NCBI GenBank assembly: GCA_947479455.1
Contig: CANJZE010000017.1
Span: 1 to 64,000, forward strand
Source: Bacteroidota bacterium
Lineage (GTDB): Bacteria > Bacteroidota > Bacteroidia > Chitinophagales > LD1
Direction of reading: 5' to 3'
Length of the DNA: 64,000 bases
The position numbers and the translations under genes are program-made. Position 1 is the first letter of the stretch, and every line of letters starts with the position of its first letter. Shown piece after piece: positions 19,678-40,037 of this stretch. The notes below the pieces were generated by a model. It made no database searches and was not told the DNA's origin. It was given only the letters and a program-made list of their open reading frames with translations.

Positions 19678-21270
19678 TTAGTTTTCTACTTTAAATAATT
19701 TCCAACCCCACTCCTTTTTTTCAGAGTTGTAAGTTCGTACCGCTTGCCCCTTAACTATAAGCCCGTTTGAGAGATTCGATGCTTTTACCGTGGATGGATG
19801 TATGTATGCATCGTCTATAAATCCGAAATTTTTTCCAACTGCAATTCTGACAGTTCCAGAAACTGATTTTAATAACGAAGAAGAGGCGCCAGGTCCGTTG
19901 GCTTTCGAAATAGAGTAAACTTGCTGCGGACCTTCCGCTTTCTTTTCCTTAAACCGGACATTCAAGACATCTCCAATATTTACATCAGTTATAAAACGGT
20001 CATACTTAAAGAATCCAGACTGGTTATCTACTGAAACAAAATTCAATATTTTCTTATCCGAATTTACAAAGTCAACTACAATTTCGTACTCTGGAAAGTC
20101 GGAAAATAATAACGCTTCAGCTGCAACCTGATGCTGTTTGTAAAAGTCGATGTTGTTGTCTTTTGAAGGTCCGTTTATAAACCAATCCTGTTTCATCCAG
20201 TTTGCTACAACAACTGGAATTTTAAACTCTTTCTCAGTCCTTGCAATTACAAGTAATTCAATTTCCTTTTTCGCTTCCTTAAAGAAACCTTTTCTAATCA
20301 GTAAAGCTGCCATCCTTTGACGAATTCCCACCAGAAATTCTTCAGGCGTTCTGCATAATAAAGCCTTGCAATAGCACGATAAAATCTGGTCTTCATCATT
20401 TAAAGCTTCACTCAAAACCTCCCACACCCAGAAATCATTTAATTTTTTTCTGGCAAATGGCAGTAATGCCGATAACATATTTTCCTTATCTCCAAGGGCC
20501 AGCAAAAGTTTGGCTTTGAAATAAGGTGGGTATTGGAACTCCGGGTGGTCATCAATTACCTTATCTAATTTCGGTATAAATGCCTTTATCTTTTCAATAT
20601 CTACGAACTTGTCATTGTTTTTGGGCAATAAGTGTTTAGCATAGGCAATAAATGCTTGCTCCGCAATCGACATAACATCCTTTCCGTTTGGAATTTTTTC
20701 CTTATCAAAGTCCTCTTTTCTGAAATTTTCAAATCCCCACCAATCTGCCAATTCAAAATATTTATCCCATTCTTTCAGCAACTTATGAAAAGCTTTAAAA
20801 AGAAAGCTGTAAGCCTCTGAAGGTTTGCTGTAAGAAAAAGTCTTAGCAATTTGTAAAATGTCATACCCCGCCTGTGGAAACAAAACGAACTTTGGCAAAG
20901 CTCCAGCGTTATCGGAACTTTTCATAATAGCAAATACAACTTTCCCCACTTGCCAAGCCAATTGGTCAAAAAGCATTGTTTCATTTTCAGGAAGATCTAA
21001 ACTTGTAACTTCGGACAAATACCTAATGAAGTTGTCTATCTTATTTAACTGTGCGTTAGCTTTCAAATAGTCAAATAAGACCCAACTAATATTTCTCCTT
21101 GCCCACAACACTTTGTTATCACTGTTAACCACAGCTTTCTTATCTTCTTCACTTAGTCCTTCGGCAAAGGAAAACGCACCTATCAATTCATCCAACTCTG
21201 CTTTCGCCATCAAGTAAGCCTCATCCGTTTTTCCTGCTTTCCTTAATTCCTTTATTTCTTTAGCCGGCAT
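19678..21270 (-). CDS. Helical-repeat protein with C-terminal OB/cold-shock-like domains
   Basis: A 530-aa cytoplasmic protein. Residues 1-350 are helical with TPR-like pairs (for example AFIAYAKHLLPKN, YFKAKLLLALGDKENML). Residues about 370-530 are strand-rich with two short OB/cold-shock-like units (NQSGFFKYDRFITDVNIGDV and GTVRIAVGKNFGFIDDAYIH). The first start region overlaps the helicase stop by 11 nt, showing translational coupling. A role as an RNA/DNA-binding scaffold for the helicase is an inference; I do not know a named function. Confidence 0.7.
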   Translation of the reverse strand: MPAKEIKELRKAGKTDEAYLMAKAELDELIGAFSFAEGLSEEDKKAVVNSDNKVLWARRNISWVLFDYLKANAQLNKIDNFIRYLSEVTSLDLPENETMLFDQLAWQVGKVVFAIMKSSDNAGALPKFVLFPQAGYDILQIAKTFSYSKPSEAYSFLFKAFHKLLKEWDKYFELADWWGFENFRKEDFDKEKIPNGKDVMSIAEQAFIAYAKHLLPKNNDKFVDIEKIKAFIPKLDKVIDDHPEFQYPPYFKAKLLLALGDKENMLSALLPFARKKLNDFWVWEVLSEALNDEDQILSCYCKALLCRTPEEFLVGIRQRMAALLIRKGFFKEAKKEIELLVIARTEKEFKIPVVVANWMKQDWFINGPSKDNNIDFYKQHQVAAEALLFSDFPEYEIVVDFVNSDKKILNFVSVDNQSGFFKYDRFITDVNIGDVLNVRFKEKKAEGPQQVYSISKANGPGASSSLLKSVSGTVRIAVGKNFGFIDDAYIHPSTVKASNLSNGLIVKGQAVRTYNSEKKEWGWKLFKVEN

Positions 21271-23524: not shown

Positions 23525-25273
23525 TTAAACTATCCTGGGAAATATTTTTCCTAAAGTTTGATTTATTTCTAAGCAATCTTCCTTACGCATTTTTTGATAA
23601 TCTGCTAAGTTATCAGGGTGGATAAATTTTTTTCTTGTCAGTTGATAAGAATAAATTTTCCGGGCTAATGCTATATGACTAACATCTCTCGTGATATCAA
23701 AAGACAACTTCTTAAGTATGTTGTAAATTTTTAGCGATGTGGAAGTTTTGTAGGGATCCCAAACAGCTTGAGCGGCAAATGAGTATGCATTATTATATTG
23801 GCAACTCTCAATAACTGCCCCGGTGTCTCTAAAAACCAGTTGTTTATTGGTTGGATTATATTCAATATAATAATCGTTCAATAGTTCGTAAATTTTGTAG
23901 TAAGACAAAAATGACCAACTAAAATTAAGGTCGTTTTTAAATGAACCCTTCAAAAGTTCAAAAGCCTGATCCAGTTGAATGATAACCTCGTTCTTTAATT
24001 TAAGCTTAGCAAGTGCCATTAAACCACCTCCCCCGCCCACAGAACTAATTGATGTAAGATGCTCTTTGATCATTTTCGTTTCTATTGCTATCTTTTTCAA
24101 AAAGCTTCTTTCTGTTGCTTTTCTTAGTTCGTATTTTAGGTTTTCGAAGAAATTGTAAGATACAGTTGTAATTTCGTTCTCTGGAGATATTTTAAGAATA
24201 AACCCATCAATACCTCTATTTTGTAATTCAAGTAAATTCCAGACCTTGTTTGACGCTGTGATCGCGATAACTTGAAGCCCCGGATTAATTTTCTCTTTTA
24301 TTTTTTTTAAGATTTTCAATCCTGTCATGTCATCAGCGGTTTTGTCTTTTTCGAAATCTTCATCATGCAAGCGCAGATCAAGAAGTATAATATCAGGATC
24401 ATAAGATAGTATGGTTTTCTCTATGTCATCAACCAGTTCATCAGAGGTCTCAAAATCTGTAAATTGTTTTGCGGGTTTATAGCAACTATATCCAATGTTG
24501 ACTTGATTAGAAAAAATTTTGGTAAAAATTTCATCCCAACCTTTTTGGTATTCGTCATCTATAAAAAGAATTTTTTGGGCTTGCCCTGTTAAGTTAAAAT
24601 TAGGTATAGAGGATATTGAGACCGCAGGAATTTCAACCTTTGCTAAAAGGTATTTAAAATATAACTGTGCTCTGAAGTAATCGATTTGTTCCTTAATTTT
24701 CTCATTAAGGCCCAAGGCTTGTGATAGCGTTAAGATTGACCACTCATTGGCAGTAGAATGATGTGAACTTGATTGGTTGTGACTTGAAATATTGATTTTA
24801 TCCGTTGCTATGTTACATGAATTCAATCCACCACTTACCACCTTGTCAATTTCATCTTTATGAGGCTTACATAAGTGGTTGCCAGATGCTGTAATCATAT
24901 CACCTCCATCAGCCAATTTTATTATGTGCAAAGGATCCATCCAGCTAACAAAAATTATCGGAAGAAATCTTTTTTCCGAAAGCGATTGTGTCAGTCTTAT
25001 ATGCTGAGCTAATCTTATCCCCGAAAAATCGAGCGGAGTGGTTGTAAGGGATAAAGGGATTATGTAATAGTCAATATTACAGGAAGCAATCTGTGATATA
25101 ATACTCGCAGAACCATTACTAATGAAGGTATCTATATTTACAAAGTCCCCATTTAAGTCTGACTCTTCCGGAAGTTTATATCCAATGGAAATACCATTCT
25201 CCATTTTGAGAATAGGACCGTATCTGCTATCGGTTGAATCAATTAGTAATGATTTCATTTGAGTGAATTTCAA
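23525..25273 (-). CDS. Tandem receiver-like protein of retron 2
   Basis: A 582-aa protein. Residues 235-370 form a response-regulator receiver domain with all key positions: acidic pair D239/D240 in ILFIDDEY, phospho-acceptor D299 in IILLDLRLHDED, T339 in IAITAS and K361 in GFILK. Residues about 60-130 (FSGIRLAQHIR, FLPIIFVSW) look like a second, degenerate receiver. The C-terminal 200 residues are helical and unknown; there is no DNA-binding or kinase domain. The start overlaps the previous gene by 35 nt. With the 230-aa protein and the reverse transcriptase it forms a three-gene operon behind the retron RNA. Confidence 0.75.
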   Translation of the reverse strand: MKFTQMKSLLIDSTDSRYGPILKMENGISIGYKLPEESDLNGDFVNIDTFISNGSASIISQIASCNIDYYIIPLSLTTTPLDFSGIRLAQHIRLTQSLSEKRFLPIIFVSWMDPLHIIKLADGGDMITASGNHLCKPHKDEIDKVVSGGLNSCNIATDKINISSHNQSSSHHSTANEWSILTLSQALGLNEKIKEQIDYFRAQLYFKYLLAKVEIPAVSISSIPNFNLTGQAQKILFIDDEYQKGWDEIFTKIFSNQVNIGYSCYKPAKQFTDFETSDELVDDIEKTILSYDPDIILLDLRLHDEDFEKDKTADDMTGLKILKKIKEKINPGLQVIAITASNKVWNLLELQNRGIDGFILKISPENEITTVSYNFFENLKYELRKATERSFLKKIAIETKMIKEHLTSISSVGGGGGLMALAKLKLKNEVIIQLDQAFELLKGSFKNDLNFSWSFLSYYKIYELLNDYYIEYNPTNKQLVFRDTGAVIESCQYNNAYSFAAQAVWDPYKTSTSLKIYNILKKLSFDITRDVSHIALARKIYSYQLTRKKFIHPDNLADYQKMRKEDCLEINQTLGKIFPRIV

Positions 25274-25931
25274 CGTTTATAATATTTGCTAACTCCTCCA
25301 GAAGGATTGAAAGCTCTTCATTTATGTTTACCATCTTTCCATCCGAAATTGTTTCGAAGCTTGATAAAATTTTACTTTTAGGGAAGAATTGACAAAAAGA
25401 AGATGTATAGCCAATGCGCTGCTTAAGAACGTTAAGAGGAACTGATTTCCCGATTTCTTGAATACTACCTAAGTAGTTCTGAATTTGATCACTAAGAGTA
25501 TAAAGCAGATTTAATTTCCATTTTTTTCCAAATGCAAGAATCTGAAGATTGGGTTTATCTGTGTTTTCTGCATCATCCAAAAAATCTATCAACCTACTGC
25601 TATACAACTCTTTTGAGTTGATTGAAAGAATTCTATTATTTAAAATGGTAGCTGGAGTTCCGCCTGAAAACAGCACTAAATACTTTTCGGTATTTATAAC
25701 GTAGTCTTTTAATAGAAGCCTATAGGATTGTTCTAAGAATGATCTATGAAAAATAATCACAGAATATTGATCAAATACAGACGTATCTCTCTCATTCATT
25801 TTCGCCTTCAAGGAAATTAGGTATTCGCCTTGAATATTATCCAGAACCGAATGCTCAAGTGCGTTACTAATACTTTCACTATATATCTCCTGTCTTGACT
25901 TTCTGTCGTCAACTAATACAACCTTTTTCAT
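25239..25931 (-). CDS. Pseudo-receiver protein of retron 2
   Basis: A 230-aa protein starting KKVVLVDDRKSRQEIYSES, which fits the first strand and acidic pair of a receiver domain. At the place of the phospho-acceptor strand it reads YSVIIFHRSFLEQSY, so the Asp is missing and phosphorylation is unlikely. LVLFSGGTPA and ILSINSKELY follow as later strands; the last 100 residues are helical. It overlaps the reverse transcriptase stop by 4 nt (ATGA) and the downstream receiver gene by 35 nt, so all three should be made together. Family not known to me. Confidence 0.65.
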   Translation of the reverse strand: MKKVVLVDDRKSRQEIYSESISNALEHSVLDNIQGEYLISLKAKMNERDTSVFDQYSVIIFHRSFLEQSYRLLLKDYVINTEKYLVLFSGGTPATILNNRILSINSKELYSSRLIDFLDDAENTDKPNLQILAFGKKWKLNLLYTLSDQIQNYLGSIQEIGKSVPLNVLKQRIGYTSSFCQFFPKSKILSSFETISDGKMVNINEELSILLEELANIINVEIHSNEIITN

Positions 25932-28675
25932 AGGTAAAACTTTAAAATATGCGTAAATCCTTTTATGGATGAGTCTTGAATTTCTTGAAAAAAAGGGTCA
26001 TTATTAGCTGTAAGATAGTTCAACCTGTAAGTCTTTCCGTCACCAAATTTTGACTCTACGGACCAATCACATAAATGCACAAAACATACTTTCAGATAAA
26101 AACAATCTCCGGACCTACCATCAAGTTTTGGATCATTAACCATTCGTTGACTGAAACTACCTACTTGTGTAATTCTAACTTCAATGTATGGCTGATTATT
26201 CTTGGTATCTATTGCAATGTCGCTACGTTGAATAATAGCCTTGTCGAAAGTGCTGCGTCCACCTTGAATGAAAGATTCGAAAATTCTTTTTAACCCTTCT
26301 TCTATCTTTTGCGTGTCTGTAAAAAAAGACAGCCCTTTAAGTTTTTCAAGATCGGCCGTATCTAATTGGATAGCAAAATGCCATACTTTATCCCATAAAT
26401 GAAGAATCAAATTGTAGAATTGACTTGTGTCTTCTCTAAACTCAATTTCACTTTTGAAAAGTACCGTTACGTCCTTAAAACTATAAAGTATTTTGCCATT
26501 TACCTCCAATTGCTTTTCAATCGGTAACGGATAGTTCAATGGATTTTCTTTTGGATTTTCAGTAGCCCATTTACGGAGTTCCAAACTTGACCAGCCAAAA
26601 CGTACAAAATTTTTACCCCAACCTTGGGATTTTCGGGCTACCCCAGCTTTCCATATAAACATAAAATCTGGAGATGAAATAAAGAGATCAATTTTTTTCC
26701 AAAGAGATTTAGGTATTTTGTATTGCCACTTATTATCTATCCATACTCTGTATTTTCTTTTGATAGTATTCCATTCTGCGGTTAACTTATTCGAGAATTC
26801 GATAAAGCCAGAATAATGTCCTTCATCTTCTCCTATACCAAATTCCCAACTGTGTGTTGAATATTTCAAAAGGCTTTCTGAACTTTGAAATAATTTTAAA
26901 ACAGTAAGAGTGCCTAATGGGTTATGTTGTTTATTAACAATCACTTCAGGTAAATTCTCAACCTCATTTTCATACGGCACTTCCGTTCCCTTGCGTATAG
27001 TAATATCTCTATTTAAAGTGCCTTTCTTTTTTCTCTCTTTAGCTGTTATTACAACTCGAACATTAGAATCTTTTATGTCGAAGTTTTCTTCGACTTGTGT
27101 AAACTTTCCTCCAAAAGCATTTCCAAAATTTTCCAGAATAGTAATTTCTATTATGGCCTTGTTTCTTACCAATCCTGCGTTAAAACATAATACTTGGCTA
27201 TTTAAACGGTCTTCAAAATTTTGCGCTGTTTTAACCGATTCGGGAATACCCTCCGTATCTCCCAATTCAAAATTATCTATCTTAAATTTTTGATCTGAGA
27301 TTTCAATTTTCATACCGGCTACCAGTTCGCCACTTGTTGTAAAATACCGATAATACCCGTTGGTTAAATTATATACTTGCTCAAAACTCTTTTGATACCC
27401 TATCTTTACAAGATCAGTACCTTTCACCATCATTAAAACTTCTTTATATTCCTCAGGAGTAATCCATCCTGCTTTTTCGGAATCAGTTATATCTGTTTTG
27501 ATATTTGGGATATTTGCAACTAACCCCTTTGGAGGAACCGCTATTTTAACTGATTCAATTTTCCTTTCAGTCAGTTTCTCAAAACGGATGGATAATCCAA
27601 CGTACACTCCATCCTTCTTTCCTTTTACCATTTTCAGATACTCCAACTTTCCCCAGATAACATGTGCCATATTGGGTTTGCCTTTTAGCAAATGCCCTCT
27701 ATCGCCAACGTAATCTCTTGTAAAAATTTGCTCTGCTTTTATGTAGCCGTAATGTTCCCAGAGATATAGCCACAAGCGCAATCGCTTAATGAAGCGCTTA
27801 GATACATTCACTTTCTCATTCACAATTAAACCGGTTACTTCCTGCCTGTAACCGGGACGCTGTAACCGCACTTTACTTTCTTTAATATGAAACCCCTGCG
27901 CGGCAATTATTCGGTGCAGCTCTTTTATAAAATCGCCATCCTTCTGATAAACATTATGCATGGATGAGAAGGTTATATCATCTGCATAGCGGGAATACTT
28001 CAGTCCAAAACGTTTTGCCACAGCGGTTAGATAAAAATCTAATCGTTCGCAAATAATGTTTGTGATGGTTGGAGAAGTTGGAGCTCCTTGAGGTAAAACA
28101 TTTTTCACCACTTTTGTCCATTCGCCCTTTTCATCCATACGCTCCACCTCCATTTCTTCAAAGCACAAACCTCCAATGATATTGGCTAAGTCAAGTCGGT
28201 CGCTTTTCTTATTAAGGTTAAACGGTGGATGCTGTAACCTTCCCCATAATCTTGCCTGATCTACACTTGGGAAAAAGTCTTTCAAATCAATATTGTAAAC
28301 GTATAAACTGCCGGTATGCTGCTTGGCATTATCTACAATTGATTTATTCGCAACAAATCCGGTTGCCGCTTTATGAGGTTCATATGTGCATTGCAACACT
28401 AAATTCAGGCACTTCAAAACAGACTTCAGCCCTTTATTAGGAGCGTGAATAGTTCTTGTTCCGCCCGCTTTTTTAGGAATAGAAAAACGCACATACCTTC
28501 TCCGGTTAGCTTTGGGATTAGAGTGGAAGCGAAGATGCTTTATTTCAAAAGGCACAGCCTTGTCCCCGTAAATTATTGGCTTTGTATAATTCAGCAGTGC
28601 AAGGAAATCTTGCTTGCTTTTCATTTGCTGAAAAGCATCTTTTATAAAAAGTAATTGTTCGTCTTCAAGTTTCAT
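25928..28675 (-). CDS. Retron reverse transcriptase with long C-terminal extension (retron 2)
   Basis: A 915-aa protein. Residues 1-370 are a reverse transcriptase with both retron hallmarks, NAKQH (116-120) and VTG (280-282), the motif A segment YNIDLKDFF and the catalytic YADD at 230-233. Residues about 400-915, over 500 residues, are an alpha/beta extension I cannot assign: it contains ARKSQGWGKNFVRFGWS, QFYNLILHLWDKVWHFAIQ and a late QRSDIAID, YIEVRITQVGSF pair. An msr-msd-like RNA ends 14 nt upstream. Two receiver-like genes follow with overlapping ends. In retron biology the extension or the partners would be the effector, with the RNA-DNA hybrid holding it inactive. Confidence 0.85.
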   Translation of the reverse strand: MKLEDEQLLFIKDAFQQMKSKQDFLALLNYTKPIIYGDKAVPFEIKHLRFHSNPKANRRRYVRFSIPKKAGGTRTIHAPNKGLKSVLKCLNLVLQCTYEPHKAATGFVANKSIVDNAKQHTGSLYVYNIDLKDFFPSVDQARLWGRLQHPPFNLNKKSDRLDLANIIGGLCFEEMEVERMDEKGEWTKVVKNVLPQGAPTSPTITNIICERLDFYLTAVAKRFGLKYSRYADDITFSSMHNVYQKDGDFIKELHRIIAAQGFHIKESKVRLQRPGYRQEVTGLIVNEKVNVSKRFIKRLRLWLYLWEHYGYIKAEQIFTRDYVGDRGHLLKGKPNMAHVIWGKLEYLKMVKGKKDGVYVGLSIRFEKLTERKIESVKIAVPPKGLVANIPNIKTDITDSEKAGWITPEEYKEVLMMVKGTDLVKIGYQKSFEQVYNLTNGYYRYFTTSGELVAGMKIEISDQKFKIDNFELGDTEGIPESVKTAQNFEDRLNSQVLCFNAGLVRNKAIIEITILENFGNAFGGKFTQVEENFDIKDSNVRVVITAKERKKKGTLNRDITIRKGTEVPYENEVENLPEVIVNKQHNPLGTLTVLKLFQSSESLLKYSTHSWEFGIGEDEGHYSGFIEFSNKLTAEWNTIKRKYRVWIDNKWQYKIPKSLWKKIDLFISSPDFMFIWKAGVARKSQGWGKNFVRFGWSSLELRKWATENPKENPLNYPLPIEKQLEVNGKILYSFKDVTVLFKSEIEFREDTSQFYNLILHLWDKVWHFAIQLDTADLEKLKGLSFFTDTQKIEEGLKRIFESFIQGGRSTFDKAIIQRSDIAIDTKNNQPYIEVRITQVGSFSQRMVNDPKLDGRSGDCFYLKVCFVHLCDWSVESKFGDGKTYRLNYLTANNDPFFQEIQDSSIKGFTHILKFYL

Positions 28676-29020: not shown

Positions 29021-29410
29021 CTATTTTTTTATATTCTTGGATGCTAATGAGGTTAATACGTCCTCTAAATCCTTTTTCACGAACGAATTTACGTCGCAAC
29101 CTGTGTATTTTAAATTGTGCCTTAGCCGAATTATGTCAGTTATCATAGTCGCACGAAAATTCAGAACTCGTATACAGTAAGTTTTGAATACGGAATGAAC
29201 CATGTTGTCTTGAATATCATATCCATGTTCTAAGAAAAACAGAAATACATATCGCAATGCCATGTTGTAGTCAGACAAATAATCGTTCCTTATAGAAAGT
29301 TTCTGAAGTGCATTACTTTCAATCCTCATTCTATGTTCGGGTCTGGGACTTTTAAATATGAGCCCAGAGCGAGTAAACTCATTAATTATAGAATTGATTT
29401 CGCTATTCAT
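29021..29410 (-). CDS. Unknown 129-aa helical protein
   Basis: No family is recognised. The product is predicted to be mostly alpha-helical, with basic patches (RPEHRMRIESNALQKL, RATMITDIIRLRHNLKY) and no membrane segment or signal peptide. Its start overlaps the GreA-like gene by 8 nt, so it is the last gene of the four-gene operon divergent from the sigma54 activator. It ends 36 nt before the retron 2 promoter motif. Confidence 0.6.
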   Translation of the reverse strand: MNSEINSIINEFTRSGLIFKSPRPEHRMRIESNALQKLSIRNDYLSDYNMALRYVFLFFLEHGYDIQDNMVHSVFKTYCIRVLNFRATMITDIIRLRHNLKYTGCDVNSFVKKDLEDVLTSLASKNIKK

Positions 29411-29885
29411 TAATGATATTTTTAATTTTTATAATGGCCCTTCCTCGTGGGAGCTCAACTTCATTCTCTTCATCAACAAGCGCGCTGCAAAGAGCTTTTC
29501 CCATAGGCGAATCATAACTTATCCTATTGTTCTTAATATCGGATTCCCCACTACCAACTATGTCTACTATTTGGCAAACAAAATCTTCAGTATTTCTTTT
29601 GATTAGAAACTCGACTTTGCAACCAATCTGAACTTTCTTATTGTCTATTGATGACTTTTCGAAGATGGATGCATTTGCTATTTTGTGTTGCAGAACACCA
29701 ATTTCTGAAGCAAGCATTTCTTCCTGCTGCCCGAGTTGGGTCCAACCCGGGTTGTCGTGCCAACCGTCCCCACTCACCGAGTAGGCATGCGCCTTTTCGT
29801 CCCTAAGAGTTTTGAGCATATCAATCTTATTATTAAGCCTCTCTTGCAACACTTTGAGACCAGTTTTTGTAATTTTTGTTTTCAT
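29403..29885 (-). CDS. GreA-like transcript cleavage factor homologue
   Basis: A 160-aa protein with GreA/GreB layout: an N-terminal coiled coil (ITKTGLKVLQERLNNKIDML, then an acidic-containing tip SGDGWHDNPGW and a second helix QEEMLASEIGVLQHKIANA) and a C-terminal FKBP-like domain (VQIGCKVEFLIKR, RISYDSPMGKALCSA, VELPRGRAIIKI). Canonical GreA would bind RNA polymerase through the C-terminal domain and insert the coiled-coil tip into the secondary channel. The tip differs from GreA (no clear DE-L pair), so it may act on the polymerase or a nuclease without stimulating cleavage. It belongs to the cupin-kinase operon. Confidence 0.75.
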   Translation of the reverse strand: MKTKITKTGLKVLQERLNNKIDMLKTLRDEKAHAYSVSGDGWHDNPGWTQLGQQEEMLASEIGVLQHKIANASIFEKSSIDNKKVQIGCKVEFLIKRNTEDFVCQIVDIVGSGESDIKNNRISYDSPMGKALCSALVDEENEVELPRGRAIIKIKNIINE

Positions 29886-29947
29886 TTTTTGTATTTTATG
29901 TATTGGTTAATAATATTTCTGGGCACTGAAATCAAATCGGATAGTTC

Positions 29948-30577
29948 TCATGTAAAATTCTTTGAGTAATAATCAAAAATTGATGTTATCTCACTCGTTG
30001 TTTCATGACTGTTTCCACAACAACCTACTTCCACGATTTGACACTTAAATCCTTTGCGTAAAAGCAGTCGGTCTTTGAACAATTCCTGATAAATGTCTTT
30101 GGCTAGAATCAGCGAATTCGCTTTTTCTTCCCTTTGTCCAAGTTCTTTGGTTTTTCGAGCAGCAATGTTTACGGAAGCCGCTTCAACTGTTGAATTGAGC
30201 CAAATAATTACATCCGGTTTCATAATATTTTCGTACTGTGCATTTACTCGGCCTATTGTATAGTACGGGTCCTGCCATCGCTCCCATCTAGTAACATATG
30301 ATGTGACGATACTTCTGTCTCCTAAAATTACTGGGCTTTTTTTACAATGTATCTGATTCCAATGAGCTCTTTCCCTGAATAGATGCTCCATGAATGCGTC
30401 ATTTTCTCTTAACGCTGGAAAATTGTGATGCATATTCTCTAAAGGATGCCCGCTGTACATAGGACTGGTTATCGAAAACAAGCTTGTTCCTGATTGCACT
30501 GAATCCTTCTGAGCAACCATATTTCCTAGTATCGTTGACTTTCCACTTCCCTTAATACCTTCAATAGCTATATGCAT
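29948..30577 (-). CDS. Thymidylate-kinase-like P-loop kinase
   Basis: A 209-aa protein with Walker A GIKGSGKST (residues 7-15), the DR motif in ILGDRSIVTSYVTR and a basic lid-like stretch (AARKTKELGQREEKANS), all in the order of thymidylate kinases. The usual thymidine-binding details are altered, so the substrate may be another nucleoside monophosphate or a polynucleotide end. It lies 5 nt downstream of the cupin gene and upstream of the GreA-like gene; a housekeeping Tmk would not be expected in such a setting. Confidence 0.75.
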   Translation of the reverse strand: MHIAIEGIKGSGKSTILGNMVAQKDSVQSGTSLFSITSPMYSGHPLENMHHNFPALRENDAFMEHLFRERAHWNQIHCKKSPVILGDRSIVTSYVTRWERWQDPYYTIGRVNAQYENIMKPDVIIWLNSTVEAASVNIAARKTKELGQREEKANSLILAKDIYQELFKDRLLLRKGFKCQIVEVGCCGNSHETTSEITSIFDYYSKNFT

Positions 30578-30582
30578 TATTA

Positions 30583-31404
30583 TTAATTTTTTTGAGGTGC
30601 GATTTTTTCGATAATGCCATCAAGAATTTTCACCAACGTTTTATGCTCGTACTTAACGGTTAGTTTTTCCCGCTCAAGTATTGATCTTTTTGCATATAGA
30701 TTGCAGTTGGCATCAACTGGATTACCAGTTATAATAAGGGTAATAGATTCTTCCCCATGGTTATTCTTGATACGGTGCAATTCATCTGGAAGCATCAGAT
30801 AACTTTCACCTGCGTTAAATGTCCGGGTATTTTCCTTTCGCAAGAACGATTTACCCTTTAATTCCGTAGAATAGCTGCCGCCTTTTTTATCCGAATCATA
30901 AATGAAATGATAAAGCTCTTCAGCCTCTTCGGAAGTTTTTGTAAGTTTGAAAAGTTCCATATTTAGATGACCATATAGAACAGAAGAAGCAAATGGCCAG
31001 CGGTGATCGTGAATGTTCTCCATAGGTGCTTTATATGAAACACCGAAATGATGAAGCCTCAGTTTAAAATTTCGCCCAGAAAGAAGAACGATTTTGTGAA
31101 ACCCATTTTCATGGTAATACGAATTGTTTAGCAATTCAGAAGAAAGCATTCCATCGTTCAATATTCTCCTAATTAGAATGGAAAGAATTAATGGATTTGC
31201 AACAGCCTGATTAATATCTAGTAAAGCCTCTTCAGGTGTTGAATCAACGGCATCAGATATAATGTTGGATAAAAGTTCAATGGGACCATTAAGAATGCAT
31301 TTTGTTATCTCCGATTGGCAAAGAGCGATATTGTTATTAAATCCCATAGTGAATATATTTTCTCCACTATAATCCAATGCTATGCCTTTATTTTTTAAAA
31401 TCAT
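30583..31404 (-). CDS. Cupin-fold protein, first gene of a sigma54-activator-divergent operon
   Basis: A 273-aa protein whose middle is cupin-like: FKLRLHHFG, then NIHDHRWPFASSVLYGHL with a H-x-H pair, and FNAGESYLMLPDELHRI with the second motif His. The N-terminal 100 residues are helical. The activity is unknown; cupins can be dioxygenases, isomerases or ligand binders. The annotated ATG at 31404 lies inside a perfect 13-bp inverted repeat; a later in-frame ATG at 31347 is possible. The next gene follows after 5 nt. Confidence 0.65.
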   Translation of the reverse strand: MILKNKGIALDYSGENIFTMGFNNNIALCQSEITKCILNGPIELLSNIISDAVDSTPEEALLDINQAVANPLILSILIRRILNDGMLSSELLNNSYYHENGFHKIVLLSGRNFKLRLHHFGVSYKAPMENIHDHRWPFASSVLYGHLNMELFKLTKTSEEAEELYHFIYDSDKKGGSYSTELKGKSFLRKENTRTFNAGESYLMLPDELHRIKNNHGEESITLIITGNPVDANCNLYAKRSILEREKLTVKYEHKTLVKILDGIIEKIAPQKN

Positions 31405-31430
31405 ATGTAATTGATTGTCAATTACATATG
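31402..31430. promoter_or_regulatory. Perfect 13-bp inverted repeat at the cupin gene start
   Basis: CATATGTAATTGA (31402-31414) is followed by TTG and its exact reverse complement (31418-31430). The repeat includes the ATG of the cupin gene and lies in the intergenic region of the two divergent units. As DNA it is a good operator for a dimeric regulator; as RNA it would lock the start codon in a 13-bp stem. Confidence 0.6.
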
Positions 31431-31450
31431 TTATTTAAAAAATAATATTT

Positions 31451-31485
31451 TGTTATATTATATAATTGTTGTTATATTGTATAAT
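31451..31485. repeat. Two AT-rich direct repeats before the sigma54 activator
   Basis: TGTTATATTATATAAT (31451-31466) recurs as TGTTATATTGTATAAT (31470-31485) with one mismatch. The second copy runs into the ATG of the activator at 31484. They may be binding sites for autoregulation, or the activator's promoter. Confidence 0.5.
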
Positions 31486-32965
31486 GAAAATTTTAATCAC
31501 TTGGATCGGATTTAATGAAGATTTTATTAAAACACCCTCAGGGAGTCTGCAGATTTCCGCTAAAGGCTTCACCTCTAGCTTACATAAGGACATATATGAG
31601 GCATATAAATTTGAAAAACATATAATACTGTGTACTACTGACAGCTCTAATCAGATTTCAAAAGAATTAGAAGTTAGAAAATACCTTTTGCGACAATATC
31701 TTAAAGACATTTACGGTACTCACAATGTGGAATTTGCCGATTCTGGTATAGACAAAGGAGAATTGCAAAATTTTCCAATTATAGAAAGTCACTTGCGCAA
31801 TTTTCTACAAAGGTTTGATGCGACTGAAGAACTTCATGTTGTTGCGGGTACTGGTCCGACATCTGTAAGCATGGCCTGGTGCACTTTGAGTTTGTCAATG
31901 GAAGACAAACTACAGTTACATGTAATGCAACTTCCGGAATATGCATCTGAAGGAAATCTTTCATTACTAAAAGAGATCAAACCGCATATTAATAAGCTAC
32001 TTGACAACAAACTCAGAGAGAAAAATCTGAATATAGATTTACCGCACAACATATACAAAGACGAGATAATTCTTAAGGAATATGAAACTGCCGAAGCAAT
32101 TGCCCCAGCTATTGATGTTAACGTACTGATACTAGGTGAAACCGGTTGCGGAAAAGACTTACTTGCTGAGAGAATCGTAGAAATTTCACCACTACCCCGT
32201 GATAAATATAAAGCCATAAACTGCGCTTCCCTTTCGGATGATCTCTTAGGCAGCGAATTATTTGGTCATGTAAAGGGTGCGTTCACAGGTGCTAATGACC
32301 ACAGAAAGGGTTTATTTGAAGAATGCAATGGTGGTACTTTGTTCTTAGATGAAATTGGAGATATTTCCAAGTTTATGCAACAAAGTCTTCTCAGAGCAAT
32401 AGAAAATAAACAAATCAAAAAAATAGGTGGCAACCAGATAATAAATAATGTCCGGGTTAGGATAATTGCTGCAACGAATAACAATCTATATGGAAAATGT
32501 AGGTCAGGCAAATTTAGATGGGATTTATATTATCGTTTATGTTCGATGGAAATTGAACTAGAGTCCTATAGGACTAGAACCAAACAACAGCGTAATGGGG
32601 CAATTAAATTTTATATCCAACAGGCAGAAATTAAATGGAATAGAAAAATAATTATCACCGAAGAAGCACTAGAAATAATCAAATCATATAGCTTCCCAGG
32701 TAACTTCCGCGAAATTAATAACTCGATTAATGCACTATTTGCACTTGGCATTAAAACGATAACAAAGGAGGTACTACCAAAAAGATTTACCTATACTGAG
32801 GCTCTTATCGATGAAAGCTATGAATCAGTATTAAAGAAACACTGTATAAGCTTGTACCAAAAATACAACTATGATCTCGCAGCTTCTAGAAAAGCTTTAG
32901 GCTATAAAAACAGTACCCAATTGAAAAATAAACTCATTGAATGGGGTGTATACAAGGACGAGTAA
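31484..32965 (+). CDS. Sigma54-dependent activator with RtcR/CARF-like sensor
   Basis: A 493-aa regulator. Residues 1-190 are a Rossmann-like sensor related to the RtcR/CARF group, with the glycine loop VVAGTGPTSVSMAW at about 119-132. Residues 200-430 are the AAA+ sigma54-activator domain: Walker A GETGCGKD (218-225), the sigma54-contact loop GAFTGA (265-270) and Walker B GGTLFLDE (283-290), then a conserved SFPGNFRE. The last 40 residues are a Fis-type helix-turn-helix (SRKALGYKNSTQLKNKL). RtcR proteins sense RNA with damaged ends and induce RNA repair. I took the ATG at 31484 and not an upstream TTG. No consensus sigma54 promoter (TGGCAC-N5-TTGC) is visible in the shared intergenic region. 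Confidence 0.85.
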   Translation: MKILITWIGFNEDFIKTPSGSLQISAKGFTSSLHKDIYEAYKFEKHIILCTTDSSNQISKELEVRKYLLRQYLKDIYGTHNVEFADSGIDKGELQNFPIIESHLRNFLQRFDATEELHVVAGTGPTSVSMAWCTLSLSMEDKLQLHVMQLPEYASEGNLSLLKEIKPHINKLLDNKLREKNLNIDLPHNIYKDEIILKEYETAEAIAPAIDVNVLILGETGCGKDLLAERIVEISPLPRDKYKAINCASLSDDLLGSELFGHVKGAFTGANDHRKGLFEECNGGTLFLDEIGDISKFMQQSLLRAIENKQIKKIGGNQIINNVRVRIIAATNNNLYGKCRSGKFRWDLYYRLCSMEIELESYRTRTKQQRNGAIKFYIQQAEIKWNRKIIITEEALEIIKSYSFPGNFREINNSINALFALGIKTITKEVLPKRFTYTEALIDESYESVLKKHCISLYQKYNYDLAASRKALGYKNSTQLKNKLIEWGVYKDE

Positions 32966-33247: not shown

Positions 33248-33946
33248 ATGAAATCATTCGTGAACTATCTTTCTGGTTTTTTCGGTAATCAGGACAATCC
33301 GAAGTTAATCAAAGGAAAGGAGATAAAAGATGCTTATGCTCTTTACACAAAAAGAATAGGTAAAACAAAATTAAGCTTAGAAGAACTTCAACCGTTAATT
33401 CTCAACTTGGCATATCTAGAAATTATGAGAGCTAGGAAAAATGGGAATTCCCCAAATGAAAGAAGAGTTTACCAAGATTATACTACCTCAGCGATTTCAT
33501 TATTTCCAGAATATGAAAGCGTAAACGATTCCAGACTTTTTATTGGGTTTCAAGCTACTTTACAATGGGATGGGTTATGGAATTTTTTAAAAGAATACTT
33601 TGAAAGTAAAGTGGGTATCAGAATTGATGAAGAGAGAAGAAGTATGGTCGAGTTCAACTCATCTTACCATGAAAGATATGAAAACGATACTAAAATAAGT
33701 GTAAGTGAAGTACCAAGAAAAGTATCTATCTATTTTTCAGAAGATAAATCTACTGCCCAGTTTAGTATATCGGAGACTCTTTCTCCGAAAGAAAGCTTTT
33801 TAAAATCTAAGACACAAAAGAGGCACACCTATCTAGGAACAGATGCAGATTTTTTGTTTGTAATTACTTATGACGATTTTGAAAATGTAGAACACCTCAG
33901 TTTACAAAGAATGGATAAGGACTTAAGAATAGAATACTTCGAATGA
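33248..33946 (+). CDS. Unknown first protein of a DarTG-like operon
   Basis: No family is recognised for this 232-aa product. The first half is helical (LIKGKEIKDAYALYTKRIG, LEELQPLILNLAYLEIMRAR) and the second half strand-rich (KVSIYFSEDKSTAQFSISE), ending RMDKDLRIEYFE. There is no signal or membrane segment. It overlaps the DarT-like gene by 4 nt (ATGA), so the two are translationally coupled. Standard DarTG systems have only two genes, so this is an additional component, possibly a chaperone or regulator. Confidence 0.6.
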   Translation: MKSFVNYLSGFFGNQDNPKLIKGKEIKDAYALYTKRIGKTKLSLEELQPLILNLAYLEIMRARKNGNSPNERRVYQDYTTSAISLFPEYESVNDSRLFIGFQATLQWDGLWNFLKEYFESKVGIRIDEERRSMVEFNSSYHERYENDTKISVSEVPRKVSIYFSEDKSTAQFSISETLSPKESFLKSKTQKRHTYLGTDADFLFVITYDDFENVEHLSLQRMDKDLRIEYFE

Positions 33947-35079
33947 CCTTTTTTTTGAAGGAATACAATGATAACACCTATTTAAAGCTTTGTTATCTTC
34001 TATCTGAAGAAATTTCAGGCATACAATCATTTATTTCTGAAATAAGGGAAAATCGTGATTTCCCTAGATTGTCAGAACTAATAGAAAGATACGAAAATGT
34101 GTTTTCTAAAGAGTTGATATCAAAGTATACAACTTTGAAAATCGAAAGAGTAATTAACCCACATTATTCGTTATTTCTTTCAATACCTCTGAATGCTGGT
34201 AATTCGACCTTTTTTATAAGCCTCAAAATCACAAATCCGGAATTGTTACAAATTGACGAAATCTACAATAAATCACTTAGCGGATTACTAAGACTTTATA
34301 AGAACATATTTTCTGTACTAGATAGACCTTATTACGAAATCGGTGAGGATATCTTATTGAAATATGAAAGGCTTATTGAAAATATAAACATCAAGATTAA
34401 AGAGATAAGCGCATCCTCATTCGACAAACAACAGATAGAGAAAAGGAAGCAGCTAACCAGAAGTAAAATTTTAAACCTACCACATAAGGGTTTTTATCAT
34501 ATGACACATCTTGACAATCTTGAAAGCATTACCTCTAAGGGATTATTCTCCCATAAAGAAGTTTATCAAAATGGGTTCCTAAGGGTAGACATTTCCAATT
34601 CAAAAGTTCAGGAAGAAAGAAATCGTACTGAATCTGTTTTTAATAAAAATATCCAGGAGTATGTCCCTTTATATATCAATCCTGTTAACCCAATGATGAA
34701 TTCTGAAAAGGTAAAAATGTATATTGATGATATTGTATTACTTGAAATAATCCCACACATTTTAGTCCAAAAAGAAAATACGTTATTTTCTGATGGAAAT
34801 GCTGCTCAGAAAAACACAAATTTCTATCACAATCAAAGCGATCTAGAAAAAGTAGATTGGAAATTATTACAAAAAGGAGAATGGACTTCGGGTTCTGAAA
34901 GCCACAGGATGATGTGCTCTGAAGTTCTTGTGCCCGATAAGATTGAGGTATACTACATTCAATCGCTTATTCTGAAAAGCGAAATGCAATTGAAAAAAGT
35001 ATTGCCTCTTTTCCCAAATCATAAGGGAATACAAGTAGAAATTAATTCCAAATATTTTACATCAACCCTTTTAAACTAA
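33943..35079 (+). CDS. DarT-like DNA ADP-ribosyltransferase
   Basis: A 378-aa protein. The first 180 residues are an unrecognised helical extension. From about residue 180 it follows DarT (DUF4433): GFYHMTHLDNLESITSKGLF, a basic patch, YVPLYINPVNPMM, TLFSDGNAAQKNTNFY (about 280-295) and CSEVLVPDKI, whose Glu (about 326) is in the place of the DarT catalytic Glu. Known DarT toxins modify thymine (or guanine) in single-stranded DNA, and a macrodomain antitoxin reverses it. Here the macrodomain partner follows after 4 nt. Confidence 0.8.
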   Translation: MTFFLKEYNDNTYLKLCYLLSEEISGIQSFISEIRENRDFPRLSELIERYENVFSKELISKYTTLKIERVINPHYSLFLSIPLNAGNSTFFISLKITNPELLQIDEIYNKSLSGLLRLYKNIFSVLDRPYYEIGEDILLKYERLIENINIKIKEISASSFDKQQIEKRKQLTRSKILNLPHKGFYHMTHLDNLESITSKGLFSHKEVYQNGFLRVDISNSKVQEERNRTESVFNKNIQEYVPLYINPVNPMMNSEKVKMYIDDIVLLEIIPHILVQKENTLFSDGNAAQKNTNFYHNQSDLEKVDWKLLQKGEWTSGSESHRMMCSEVLVPDKIEVYYIQSLILKSEMQLKKVLPLFPNHKGIQVEINSKYFTSTLLN

Positions 35080-35083
35080 AGAT

Positions 35084-36169
35084 ATGAGCTTGTTAAATGT
35101 CATTTCAGTTCCCACAGCCACAGGCATTAAAACTATTGAAATTCATAATACCGATATTTCTCAGTTGAAGTGGGATGTTGACCTACTTGTAATATCTGCT
35201 TACCAAAATAAATATACGCCGCAACCAAACACGGTGATACAATCGCTTCAAGATAATACGGGAATTATCATCAAAGACCTGGCGATGAAACCCTTTTTAG
35301 ATTTTAGAGAGTCCTTAAATTGCTGGATAAGCCCTAGAATAAACGACTTACATTTTAAATACATTCTATGCGTGGAAGGAATAAAATCAAACATAGCGTA
35401 TGATGGAACGAGTGAAGGAGCCATATCAAACTTATTTGCTGTATTGTCGATATTGCAATATAAAAACGTTGCTACTTCAAGTATAGCTTTACCATTACTT
35501 GGAACCGGTTACCAAAATAATTCAATAGAAATAATTCTCCCAATCTTAATTGATCAAGCAATCAAGGCTTTAAACACTAACTCCAATCTCGATACAATAT
35601 ATTTTGTCGAAGTTGATGAACGTAAGGCTAAATTAATTGACGATACAGTAAACAAATACTTAAAAAGAAGTAATGAAACACTTGAGATGGTTCTTGAAGA
35701 CCCACACATATCAAATATTTTTGATCAAATTTTGAGTAAACTAATAGTCGTAAGGGATTCAAACCCTAAAATGACTGATAATAAAACGATATCTGATATA
35801 ATCGAAAAAATAGTCACTAAGCAGCTGCGTTTCTTTGAACTTGGTATATTAAACAGGAAATTACTTGAGCTATTATTATCAGAAATGTCAAACATCAAAT
35901 CGGATAAATACATCTCTTTGTTCGATTATATAAACGACTTAAAAAACAGCAACATTGCCGATTGGATGATAACGTATCTACATACTTTGAGAGTTTTTGG
36001 AAATTTTGTTTCTCATAAAGATGATGCTAAGGAAATACCCAATCATATGGAAAAGACCGATATCATTTTTTTTGTTCATGCAATGAATAGATTTTTGGAA
36101 TTTTATTTGAACTGTAAGGGAGGTGTTACCTACAATAGACAACCTGCTACTCTTTCCTTAGTATCATAA
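35084..36169 (+). CDS. DarG-like macrodomain antitoxin with DUF4145-like tail
   Basis: A 361-aa protein. Residues 1-190 are macrodomain-like: IEIHNTDISQLKWDVDLLVIS, and the loop ALPLLGTGYQNNSIE in the ADP-ribose binding position (about 145-158). The remainder is helical, with a DUF4145-like stretch (MITYLHTLRVFGNFVSHKDD). It lies 4 nt after the DarT-like gene and probably detoxifies its product. The macrodomain is divergent from canonical DarG, and the N-terminal Asn-Ala-Ala-Asn signature is not evident. Confidence 0.7.
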   Translation: MSLLNVISVPTATGIKTIEIHNTDISQLKWDVDLLVISAYQNKYTPQPNTVIQSLQDNTGIIIKDLAMKPFLDFRESLNCWISPRINDLHFKYILCVEGIKSNIAYDGTSEGAISNLFAVLSILQYKNVATSSIALPLLGTGYQNNSIEIILPILIDQAIKALNTNSNLDTIYFVEVDERKAKLIDDTVNKYLKRSNETLEMVLEDPHISNIFDQILSKLIVVRDSNPKMTDNKTISDIIEKIVTKQLRFFELGILNRKLLELLLSEMSNIKSDKYISLFDYINDLKNSNIADWMITYLHTLRVFGNFVSHKDDAKEIPNHMEKTDIIFFVHAMNRFLEFYLNCKGGVTYNRQPATLSLVS

Positions 36170-37897: not shown

Positions 37898-38107
37898 TTG
37901 GAATTTGAGCACGATATTGAATTTAGAACAGAGTTCAGTGATGTACTTCATGATCGAGAATTAAAAATGAATAATGGTTGGAGTATAAAAATGGGAAGGG
38001 GTCTGGATTATTTTCAATCGTTGGGTGGAAATTACTTCCAGATCGGAACAAATGATTTGGAATTAAGACCTTGCTTAGAAACAAGTTTTGATTTTTATAA
38101 AAGCTAA
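37898..38107 (+). pseudogene. Remnant of an MIT_C domain protein
   Basis: The frame encodes only the C-terminal part of an MIT_C (MITD1 C-terminal, phospholipase-D-like) domain: VLHDRELKMNNGWSIKMGRG, then LDYFQ and DLELRPCLETSFDFY. Its 5' end is not normal: an in-frame TAA stands right before the first TTG codon and there is no ATG or coding sequence upstream that would complete the domain (usual size about 140 residues). I read it as a decayed gene fragment. It ends next to the DUF262 gene, so a lost partner or an old rearrangement is possible. Confidence 0.55.
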
Positions 38108-38138
38108 AAAGGATTCTAGGAATTTAGAAGCAAAAATT

Positions 38139-40037
38139 ATGCAAGCAAATAAACTTTCCTTCGCGGATTTACTCAAAATCGAAGGCAACATTGAACACTA
38201 CCATATTCCGAAATATCAAAGAGAGTATGTATGGGGTAAGTATGAATGGGAGACGCTATTAAATGACATCAATGAAAACGATTTAGACTATTTTGTAGGT
38301 TCGGTTATAGTAGTTTCATATTCCGATGTTCGTCCTGGTGCTGAGAAGATTTATCAGGTAATTGATGGTCAACAACGACTGACCACTCTTACGCTTTTAT
38401 TAGCTGCGATATATTCTAAATTTCTAACCTTCAAGGATTCTTTTGATCCAGAGGATCAAGATGCGATTTCTGATTTTCAGGTCAAGCTAAACAGCATCAG
38501 AAAGAAATTGATCTTTAAAAAGACTCAGATATACAATGATGAAATTGGAGGCTTTACAGATGGTAACTATCAATGCTTCTTGAGAGTTCAACCTTCAACC
38601 CAAAACAACAATCTGGCTGATTACAAGTATATCTTTAAGGAATGTGGTTTAATTAATCGTGCAGATGTTACAAAGAATTTTGGGAATCGAAGATTTTCAA
38701 AGGCGTTTCAATTTTTTCTTCTTGAAACGCCAGATATCTTGGATGAATTGAATCAATTATTGGAGAAAATCAATCGACTTGTATTTATCCATATTGCTGT
38801 AAGCACACAATCAGATGCTTTCGTTCTTTTCGAAACGTTGAACAATCGTGGTGTAGACCTGTCTCCAATTGACATAATAAAAAACAGTTTACTGGCTGAG
38901 ATGGAAAAACAAAGGAGTCAAAACATTGATGATTCTTTTCAACGGTGGCAAGAGTTGATGGAATTGATACCAGAATTTGAAAATCAACTTCGCTTCCTAA
39001 GGCAATATTACAATGCGTTCAAAGTGAATCCAGCGATCAAACATGATAAGGTCACTAAAGCTACAAAAACAAATGTGCTTCTAGTCTATGAGCGTCTAAT
39101 AAAGAATAATGCTGAATTTGTTTTTGATGAGCTAATTGCGAAAGCCCAATTGTATAGCCAACTCATAGAAGTAACCCCTTCAAGTAGTGCTGAAATCAAC
39201 CAAAAATTGACCGAACTCAATCGGGTTGGAGCTGCTGCGTCATATACGTTGTTACTTTATTTGTTGGAAAACAAATCAAAACTTTCTTCTCCGGATGTAT
39301 TTGGCAAGACCCTTGACTTTTTAATTAAATATTATCTAAGAAGAAATGTGACTGATATTCCCAATACCAGGGACCTTGATTCCATAAACATTGAGGTTGT
39401 TGAAAAGTGTCATCAGGCAATTGGAAGAGGAGAAGCGATTTCATTTGATTTTATAAAAACGCTACATATTAATAGCAACAGATCAAAACCTGCCTCATTA
39501 GATACTTTCAAAGAATGGCTGAATGGTGCTATGTATGAAAACAACGTAGGAATGACCAGATACCTGTTGTGGAAAGTAGATAGTATCTATCATACAAGGG
39601 AATATGCTCCTGATCTTTGGAAACGAGATGATGTTAGCCAAAAATATGTTTGGACAATTGAGCACGTATTTCCAGAAGGCAAAAACATTCCTCCATCCTG
39701 GGTCAATATGATTGGCGGAGGTGACCAAACTAAAGCTGAGCAAATACAAGGAGAATGCGTTCACAAACTTGGAAATTTGACTCTTTCTGCCTACAACTCA
39801 AAATTATCTAATCGTTCTTTTCAGGATAAACGGAATCTTTCAACTAGAAGAGTAGGAACAGAGGATTTGAAAATTGGGTATTTAAATGGCTTAGGATTGA
39901 ACAAATTGAAATATGATATAGGGGCCAATTCAGAATCTTTGGCTTCTACAACGGTCTGGAACAGGGAACACATTGATGCCAGGACTGAAGCGGTGGTAAA
40001 GATATTGATTCAAATTTTCAAATTTGACAATGAATAA
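38139..40037 (+). CDS. GmrSD-type (DUF262/DUF1524) modification-dependent endonuclease
   Basis: A 632-aa protein fusing the two halves of GmrSD-like type IV restriction enzymes. DUF262 (GmrS-like, NTP-dependent) covers the N terminus: YHIPKYQREYVWGKYEWETL, YQVIDGQQRLTTLTLLLA and FETLNNRGVDLSPIDIIKN. DUF1524 (GmrD-like HNH nuclease) covers the C terminus: WTIEHVFPEGKNIPPSW, then HKLGNLTLSAYNSKLSNRSF. Such enzymes cut modified phage DNA. I took the ATG at 38139; an upstream ATG at 38088 overlaps the MIT_C remnant. Confidence 0.9.
   Translation: MQANKLSFADLLKIEGNIEHYHIPKYQREYVWGKYEWETLLNDINENDLDYFVGSVIVVSYSDVRPGAEKIYQVIDGQQRLTTLTLLLAAIYSKFLTFKDSFDPEDQDAISDFQVKLNSIRKKLIFKKTQIYNDEIGGFTDGNYQCFLRVQPSTQNNNLADYKYIFKECGLINRADVTKNFGNRRFSKAFQFFLLETPDILDELNQLLEKINRLVFIHIAVSTQSDAFVLFETLNNRGVDLSPIDIIKNSLLAEMEKQRSQNIDDSFQRWQELMELIPEFENQLRFLRQYYNAFKVNPAIKHDKVTKATKTNVLLVYERLIKNNAEFVFDELIAKAQLYSQLIEVTPSSSAEINQKLTELNRVGAAASYTLLLYLLENKSKLSSPDVFGKTLDFLIKYYLRRNVTDIPNTRDLDSINIEVVEKCHQAIGRGEAISFDFIKTLHINSNRSKPASLDTFKEWLNGAMYENNVGMTRYLLWKVDSIYHTREYAPDLWKRDDVSQKYVWTIEHVFPEGKNIPPSWVNMIGGGDQTKAEQIQGECVHKLGNLTLSAYNSKLSNRSFQDKRNLSTRRVGTEDLKIGYLNGLGLNKLKYDIGANSESLASTTVWNREHIDARTEAVVKILIQIFKFDNE

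What the first reader, a model, noticed from the sequence alone, without database searches (positions are those of the whole stretch)
29021..32965. RtcR/CARF-like sigma54 activator divergent from a cupin, TMK-like kinase and GreA-like operon
The activator has a complete AAA+ domain with GAFTGA and an RtcR/CARF-like sensor, a group that responds to RNA-end or nucleotide signals. The divergent genes combine a nucleotide-kinase fold, a transcript-cleavage-factor homologue and a cupin. This set is not the classic rtcBA RNA repair cassette, so it could be an uncharacterised stress or conflict response acting on nucleotides or the RNA polymerase.
Basis: partly seen in the sequence, partly recalled or inferred. 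Interest (0 to 1): 0.75.

Follow-up and report, generated by a model that had tools for sequence, protein, structure and literature searches.

The report
CARF switch with cupin-kinase-Gre cassette
A defence-island gene set found in three related bacteria joins a signal-sensing gene switch to three proteins that look built to alter nucleotides and act on RNA polymerase, a combination I could not find described and that may be a new way to fight phages or survive damage.

Summary
The window has a CARF + AAA+ sigma54 activator (31484-32965 +), divergent from a compact operon: cupin, nucleotide kinase, GreA-like factor and a 129-aa protein. The neighbourhood is conserved. Two other genomes of the same order carry activator, cupin, kinase and GreA-like gene in the same divergent order, at 60/41, 52/33, 49/29 and 61/45% identity; everything outside the cassette differs. 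The activator belongs to the non-Rtc RtcR-like branch (PADLOC RtcR_PspF2), already linked to restriction and other defence loci; this genome has no RtcB. New details: the cupin is three-histidine, cysteine-dioxygenase-like; its relatives sit beside nucleotide kinases in plasmid biosynthetic clusters, beside SLATT membrane proteins, and near RNA-repair genes in phages. The GreA-like protein keeps its acidic coiled-coil tip, by far its most conserved part. In one instance a near-consensus sigma54 promoter precedes the cupin, and a SLATT/CD-NTase (CBASS-like) pair follows the activator. Best reading: an inducible defence or stress cassette in which cupin and kinase make or process a nucleotide and the Gre-like factor acts on RNA polymerase. 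Chemistry, ligand and phenotype are untested. New variant of a known kind; very rare (three instances found).

The parts
31484..32965 (+). CARF + AAA+ (GAFTGA) + HTH sigma54 activator, RtcR_PspF2 type
   Evidence: Pfam, NCBIfam, PADLOC; ATG start by orthologue alignment; 60% and 41% identical to the activators in L002 and L030
30583..31347 (-). cupin, three-His cysteine-dioxygenase-like (ORF extends to 31404; likely start M20 at 31347)
   Evidence: HxH...H invariant in all relatives; PHROG 4786 E 3e-7 for the L030 orthologue; hhalign to CDO_I proteins E 9e-5 in a single comparison, controls 0.38-0.81
29948..30577 (-). P-loop nucleotide/nucleoside kinase of the TMK/dNK superfamily (EGIKGSGKST, GDRS)
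   Evidence: 5 bp after the cupin stop codon
29403..29885 (-). GreA-like factor; coiled-coil tip SGDGWHDNPGW with two acidic residues (D40, D44)
   Evidence: 26 of 29 residues invariant at the tip against 38 of 131 elsewhere; a separate canonical GreA is on contig C14
29021..29410 (-). 129-aa accessory protein of unknown fold, overlapping the end of the GreA-like gene
   Evidence: 36% identical to the gene at the same place in L002; absent from L030
31402..31430 (.). perfect 13-bp inverted repeat CATATGTAATTGA-TTG-TCAATTACATATG in the divergent spacer; candidate operator (inferred)
   Evidence: not found in L002 or L030
31372..31387 (-). degenerate sigma54 -24/-12-like site AGGCATAGCATTGGAT, 24 nt before the cupin M20 codon; weak candidate only
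   Evidence: same spacing as the strong site in L030 (TGGCACTCCACTTGAA, 25 nt before the cupin ATG)
33248..33946 (+). 232-aa ORF of unknown function downstream of the activator (loosely linked, window only)
   Evidence: no family match at a meaningful E-value
33943..35079 (+). DarT-like ssDNA ADP-ribosyltransferase with a long N-terminal extension (loosely linked, window only)
   Evidence: PF14487 E 1.4e-37 over residues 185-372
35084..36169 (+). macro-like + DUF4145 protein; also directly follows the activator in L002, without DarT
   Evidence: DUF4145 E 2.7e-5; 32% identical to L002:4249-5226; macro similarity weak (PARP14 macrodomains E 0.03)

Best explanation
A mobile, inducible conflict/stress cassette. 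A CARF-domain sigma54 activator senses an infection- or damage-derived oligonucleotide (RNA ends, or a cyclic oligonucleotide where a CD-NTase is encoded beside it) and switches on a divergent operon. The cupin (non-haem, three-His, oxygenase-like) and the TMK/dNK-type kinase act in sequence on a nucleoside or nucleotide and yield a modified nucleotide. The GreA-like factor enters the RNA polymerase secondary channel and restarts or edits transcription complexes stalled by that nucleotide or by damage. Shown here: gene identities, conserved divergent linkage in three genomes, conserved metal-ligand and tip residues, defence context, and a near-consensus sigma54 promoter in one instance. Inferred: ligand, substrate, direction of effect, anti-phage role, and how the parts work together.
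For: Linkage: same four genes, same divergent order, in the window, L002 and L030 with unrelated flanks. All three strong members of this GreA-like subfamily found lie in the cassette; a scan of 296 genomes of G734's family returned only G734 at E<=1e-20. Switch: RtcR_PspF2 family; rpoN present; TGGCACTCCACTTGAA, the best site in 15 kb on either strand, 25 nt before the L030 cupin (expected 0.06). Nucleotide theme: the kinase is TMK/dNK and also resembles PADLOC PDC-M51B (L002 kinase E 6e-8), whose partner model PDC-M51A matches radical-SAM-type proteins; cupin relatives sit next to thymidylate kinase + pyrF in Vibrio plasmids and near a dNK-like gene + histidine phosphatase in a Pantoea plasmid. 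RNAP theme: tip conservation 26/29 against 38/131 elsewhere. Defence theme: TOTE-like, GmrSD, RT-HisKin and DpdF-like genes nearby; SLATT + CD-NTase behind the L030 activator; cupin + SLATT-like pairs in L033 and L034.
Against: No activity, ligand or phage phenotype is known. The window's own spacer lacks a convincing sigma54 promoter. The GreA-like tip loop appears one residue longer between its two acids than in GreA, so cleavage may be lost. Kinase and cupin fall below curated cut-offs of named families. Phage relatives of the cupin lie near RlaP or RNA ligase/polynucleotide kinase genes, pointing equally to RNA repair. Only three cassettes were found.
Confidence: 0.4

Rival explanations
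1. RNA-damage or nucleotide-damage tolerance cassette: the CARF activator senses broken RNA as classical RtcR does; kinase and cupin process damaged nucleotides or RNA termini, and the GreA-like factor rescues arrested RNA polymerase. It is repair, with no toxic or antiviral product.
For: RtcR CARF binds tRNA halves ending in 2',3'-cyclic phosphate (PMC7790460); phage relatives of the cupin sit close to RlaP, an RNA-repair polymerase-beta family, and in Daredevil in a region with RNA ligase and polynucleotide kinase genes; the genome has no RtcB.
Against: The kinase is of the TMK/dNK type, not the polynucleotide-kinase type; no ligase or RNA-binding module in the cassette; plasmid cupin relatives lie in metabolite clusters.
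Confidence: 0.25
2. Shut-off cassette: the GreA-like protein is a Gfh1-like secondary-channel inhibitor, and the cupin/kinase products or signals serve abortive infection; the operon stops transcription rather than rescuing it.
For: The tip departs from the canonical GDLxENAEY motif; Gfh1 is among the solved relatives (E 3e-9); partners behind the activator are toxin- or effector-like (DarT, SLATT).
Against: Two acidic residues are kept at the tip and the closest solved relative is GreA itself (1grj, E 1e-13).
Confidence: 0.2
3. Operon of convenience: metabolic genes (cupin, kinase) carried in a defence island, with the activator serving mainly the genes downstream of itself (DarT/macro, SLATT/CD-NTase).
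For: Genes behind the activator are contiguous with it in L002 and L030; the window's divergent spacer lacks a clear sigma54 site.
Against: The divergent operon is the constant part and the downstream genes are the variable part; in L030 the strong sigma54 site faces the cupin.
Confidence: 0.15

Closest known systems
RtcR / rtcBA RNA-repair regulon
   Same: CARF + sigma54 AAA+ + HTH activator divergent from its presumed target operon
   Different: Regulated genes differ entirely; genome lacks RtcB; activator scores 219 bits against the RtcR cut-off of 650
RtcR-like CARF-AAA-HTH activators linked to R-M and CoCoNuT loci (PMC4012209, PMC11090510)
   Same: Same family of activator (PADLOC RtcR_PspF2), same defence-island setting; relatives L012 and L013 adjoin Type I R-M-like genes
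   Different: No restriction or CoCoNuT gene in the divergent operon; cupin, kinase and GreA-like cargo not described in the papers I could search
Radical-SAM + kinase defence pairs (PADLOC PDC-M51; prokaryotic viperin as a recalled analogy)
   Same: A nucleotide kinase of related type beside an enzyme that could modify nucleotides
   Different: No radical SAM enzyme here; a cupin instead; a Gre-like factor added
CBASS (CD-NTase + 2TM effector)
   Same: Present directly behind the activator in L030
   Different: Not present in the window or L002 cassette
GreA/GreB/Gfh1
   Same: Gre C-terminal domain and coiled coil with an acidic tip
   Different: Tip SGDGWHDNPGW instead of GDLxENAEY; a separate canonical GreA exists in the genome
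Cysteine dioxygenase-type cupins
   Same: HxH...H ligands in register; PHROG 4786 E 3e-7
   Different: No Pfam CDO_I hit; about 25-30% identity even to plasmid and phage relatives; substrate unknown

Membership tests
RtcR (rtc RNA repair activator) | N-terminal CARF + AAA+ with GAFTGA + HTH | tested here: met
RtcR (rtc RNA repair activator) | equivalog score / control of rtcBA | tested here: not met
   219 bits against cut-off 650; no RtcB in the genome
RtcR (rtc RNA repair activator) | CARF binds RNA with 2',3'-cyclic phosphate | not testable with these tools
   needs a binding assay
RtcR_PspF2 non-Rtc CARF activators | profile match over CARF and AAA+ regions | tested here: met
   E 1.6e-82, 6.7e-93 for L030
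RtcR_PspF2 non-Rtc CARF activators | defence-locus context | tested here: met
Sigma54-dependent operon | -24/-12 promoter before the operon | tested here: inconclusive
   clear in L030, degenerate in the window, ambiguous in L002
GreA/GreB | Gre C-terminal domain | tested here: met
   PF01272 60 bits, cut-off 26.9
GreA/GreB | catalytic acidic pair at the coiled-coil tip | tested here: inconclusive
   D40 and D44 invariant, but loop apparently one residue longer
GreA/GreB | curated GreA score | tested here: not met
   77 against 139 bits
dTMP kinase | curated score | tested here: not met
   39 against 83 bits; TMK/dNK superfamily only
Cysteine dioxygenase-type cupin | three-His metal site | tested here: met
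   invariant in all aligned relatives
Cysteine dioxygenase-type cupin | Pfam CDO_I match | tested here: not met
   only remote similarity
CBASS | CD-NTase plus effector | tested here: not met
   absent from the window genes tested; present in L030
Prokaryotic viperin | radical SAM enzyme in the operon | tested here: not met
   no radical SAM hit among the cassette genes

The most novel reading that the evidence does not exclude
An oxygenase-kinase pair (cupin + TMK-like kinase) makes a transcription-poisoning modified nucleotide on a CARF-sensed infection signal, and a dedicated Gre-type factor gives the host polymerase self-immunity by excising it: a viperin-like strategy with different chemistry and a built-in transcription-proofreading antidote.
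Probability: 0.2. Interest if true: 0.9.

Novelty: new variant of a known kind. Interest (0 to 1): 0.6.

Why it matters
It extends CARF-sigma54 switches from RNA repair and restriction loci to a cargo aimed, by its parts, at nucleotides and RNA polymerase, and it places a CD-NTase directly behind a CARF activator in one genome. That makes a long-open question (what the non-Rtc RtcR-like CARF domains sense) testable. If the modified-nucleotide reading is right, it would be a new chemical branch of antiviral nucleotides with a dedicated self-protection factor.

Tried and rejected
AlphaFold of the cupin (two-sequence alignment) failed (pLDDT 34), and that of the kinase is poor (pLDDT 51; fold hits TMK/dCK/AbmG not relied on). 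PDB sequence searches with the cupin, CARF and 129-aa profiles gave nothing useful. No viral-contig relatives of the cupin, kinase or GreA-like protein. Kinase, GreA-like protein, CARF and macro/DUF4145 gave no plasmid hits. A simple rtc regulon was rejected. Chance neighbours were rejected. Paper searches for the combination found nothing; one search was spoiled because 'grea' also matches 'great'; the meaning of the PADLOC name VakA could not be verified; the main RNA-repair survey I wanted (10.1093/nar/gkw722) is not held. A reading of the cassette kinase as the only dTMP kinase is not supported: another TMK-type gene lies on contig C5, though also below the model's cut-off.
Full report
WHAT IS THERE. 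The window, part of a 3.76-Mb, 95.9%-complete genome in 70 contigs, has the genes described at the stated coordinates. The activator is a CARF + AAA+ + HTH protein with GETGCGK, GAFTGA and LFLDEIGD motifs. Its best PADLOC family is RtcR_PspF2--CARF_AAA_HTH (E 1.6e-82, residues 7-445). Divergent from it lie cupin, kinase, GreA-like and 129-aa genes with gaps of 5 bp, 62 bp and an 8-bp overlap, as expected for an operon. Orthologue alignment moves the activator start to ATG 31484 and the cupin start probably to M20 at 31347.

IS IT CONSERVED? Yes. L002 (CANFGZ010000018.1, a MAG labelled Chitinophagaceae) has all five genes in the same divergent order: activator 60%, cupin 52%, kinase 49%, GreA-like 61%, 129-aa 36% identical. 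L030 (genome G734, same order, another family) has activator, cupin, kinase and GreA-like gene in the same order at 41, 33, 29 and 45%, without the 129-aa gene. Apart from a macro-like/DUF4145 gene shared by the window and L002, flanking genes differ in all three. The cassette is rare: a GTDB-species contig scan returned one further locus; profile searches found the cupin family in 1 of 395 phylum and 6 of 398 order genomes, the window genome included. Of the other five order genomes, four have the cupin outside such a cassette as far as their contigs show. The GreA-like subfamily appeared at E<=1e-20 in only 1 of 296 genomes of G734's family, G734 itself. Every strong member of that subfamily that I found lies in this cassette.

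THE SWITCH. Makarova et al. 2014 (PMC4012209) describe RtcR-like CARF activators not linked to Rtc and often near restriction-modification systems; the CoCoNuT paper (PMC11090510) describes RtcR homologues leading defence superoperons. Two distant relatives found here, L012 and L013, adjoin genes that read as Type I R-M. The window genome has rpoN and no RtcB. In L030, TGGCACTCCACTTGAA lies 25 nt before the cupin ATG. It is the single match in 15 kb (expected 0.06) and nothing else in the locus scores as high. The window has only a degenerate site, AGGCATAGCATTGGAT, at the same spacing (24 nt; score 2.4 against 11.7), plus a perfect 13-bp palindrome (31402-31430) in the spacer. So activator control is likely in L030 and plausible in the window; it is not shown.

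THE CARGO. (a) Cupin: HxH and a distal His are invariant in all relatives. The L030 orthologue hits PHROG 4786 'cysteine dioxygenase' at 3e-7, and profile-profile comparison with CDO_I proteins gives E 9e-5 with the metal ligands in register, against 0.38-0.81 for four unrelated profiles (a single comparison, not a database search). (b) Kinase: EGIKGSGKST P-loop, GDRS motif, profile hits to thymidylate and deoxynucleoside kinases; it is below the curated dTMP-kinase cut-off, so the substrate is open. (c) GreA-like: Gre C-terminal domain, closest solved relative GreA. Residues 30-58 around the tip are 26/29 invariant across the three orthologues, against 38/131 elsewhere. The tip reads SGDGWHDNPGW where GreA has GDLxENAEY; two acids remain but their spacing seems one longer. 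The genome has a separate canonical GreA. (d) The 129-aa protein has no informative match.

CONTEXT CLUES. The genes behind the activator vary: 232-aa ORF + DarT + macro-like/DUF4145 in the window; macro-like/DUF4145 alone in L002 (32% identical); SLATT_6-like 2TM protein + SMODS CD-NTase in L030. Cupin relatives outside the cassette occur beside SLATT-like 2TM proteins (L033, L034; SLATT is my reading of the sequences, the L033 Pfam match being non-significant), beside a predicted NTPase (L031), next to thymidylate kinase and pyrF in Vibrio plasmid clusters with an adenylation enzyme and acyl carrier protein, in Pantoea/Erwiniaceae plasmid clusters with histidine phosphatase and a dNK-like gene, and in phages a few genes from RlaP-type or other annotated nucleotidyltransferases, or in a region with RNA ligase and polynucleotide kinase genes. 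The kinase also resembles PADLOC PDC-M51B (L002 orthologue E 6e-8), whose partner model PDC-M51A matches radical-SAM-type proteins (radical SAM judged from the CxxxCxxC-like motif). These clues agree on nucleotide or RNA chemistry and on biological conflict, but not on one pathway.

MECHANISM. Most likely: signal -> CARF activator -> sigma54 transcription -> cupin + kinase change a nucleotide, GreA-like factor services RNA polymerase. Shown: identities, linkage, residue conservation, defence setting, one sigma54 promoter. Inferred: ligand, substrate, and whether the product is a weapon (best reading), a repaired metabolite (rival 1) or part of a shut-off (rival 2). Confidence 0.4 for the best reading as a whole. 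I would put about 0.9 on the narrower claim that this is a real, conserved, CARF-associated defence-island cassette.

NOVELTY. The switch is of a known kind; the cargo combination was not found in the searchable literature, and PADLOC has no match for the cupin or the GreA-like protein of the window. Subscription papers and preprints were not searchable, so an earlier description cannot be excluded.

Noticed in passing
window 23525-28675 (-): Reverse transcriptase (retron-like) fused to a HisKin-conflict histidine-kinase domain, with a 230-aa gene and an iREC + receiver-domain protein: a possible RT plus two-component-like conflict system.
   Followed up: no
window 19678-23464 (-): Two genes matching PADLOC PDC-M16A/B with TOTE-type domains (TBP-TOTE, S1CSD-TOTE).
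   Followed up: no
window 13692-19224 (+) and 38088-40037 (+): DpdF-like helicase with a partner gene, and a GmrSD-type restriction enzyme; the region is a dense defence island.
   Followed up: no
window 33943-36169 (+): DarT with a ~180-aa N-terminal extension followed by a macro-like + DUF4145 gene; the latter also follows the activator in L002 without any DarT.
   Followed up: partly
L033:5635-7054 and L034:6557-7997: Two-gene pairs of cupin and SLATT-like 2TM protein in two genomes, possibly a small defence system of their own.
   Followed up: no
L003, L004, L005, L006: Vibrio and Pantoea/Erwiniaceae plasmid gene clusters with the cupin, nucleotide kinases, pyrF or histidine phosphatase, and in Vibrio NRPS-like genes: possible uncharacterised nucleoside-type metabolite clusters.
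   Followed up: partly
L047 (Candidatus Pantoea carbekii plasmid): A 7.6-kb plasmid of an insect symbiont keeps the cupin and the histidine phosphatase, which suggests a retained metabolic role.
   Followed up: no
L048, L049, L051: Actinophages carry the cupin (PHROG 8313) a few genes from an annotated nucleotidyltransferase, RlaP-type in L048 and L049.
   Followed up: partly
L030:293-1880 (+): A second SMODS CD-NTase with an upstream 260-aa gene, about 5.7 kb before the activator of the same locus.
   Followed up: no
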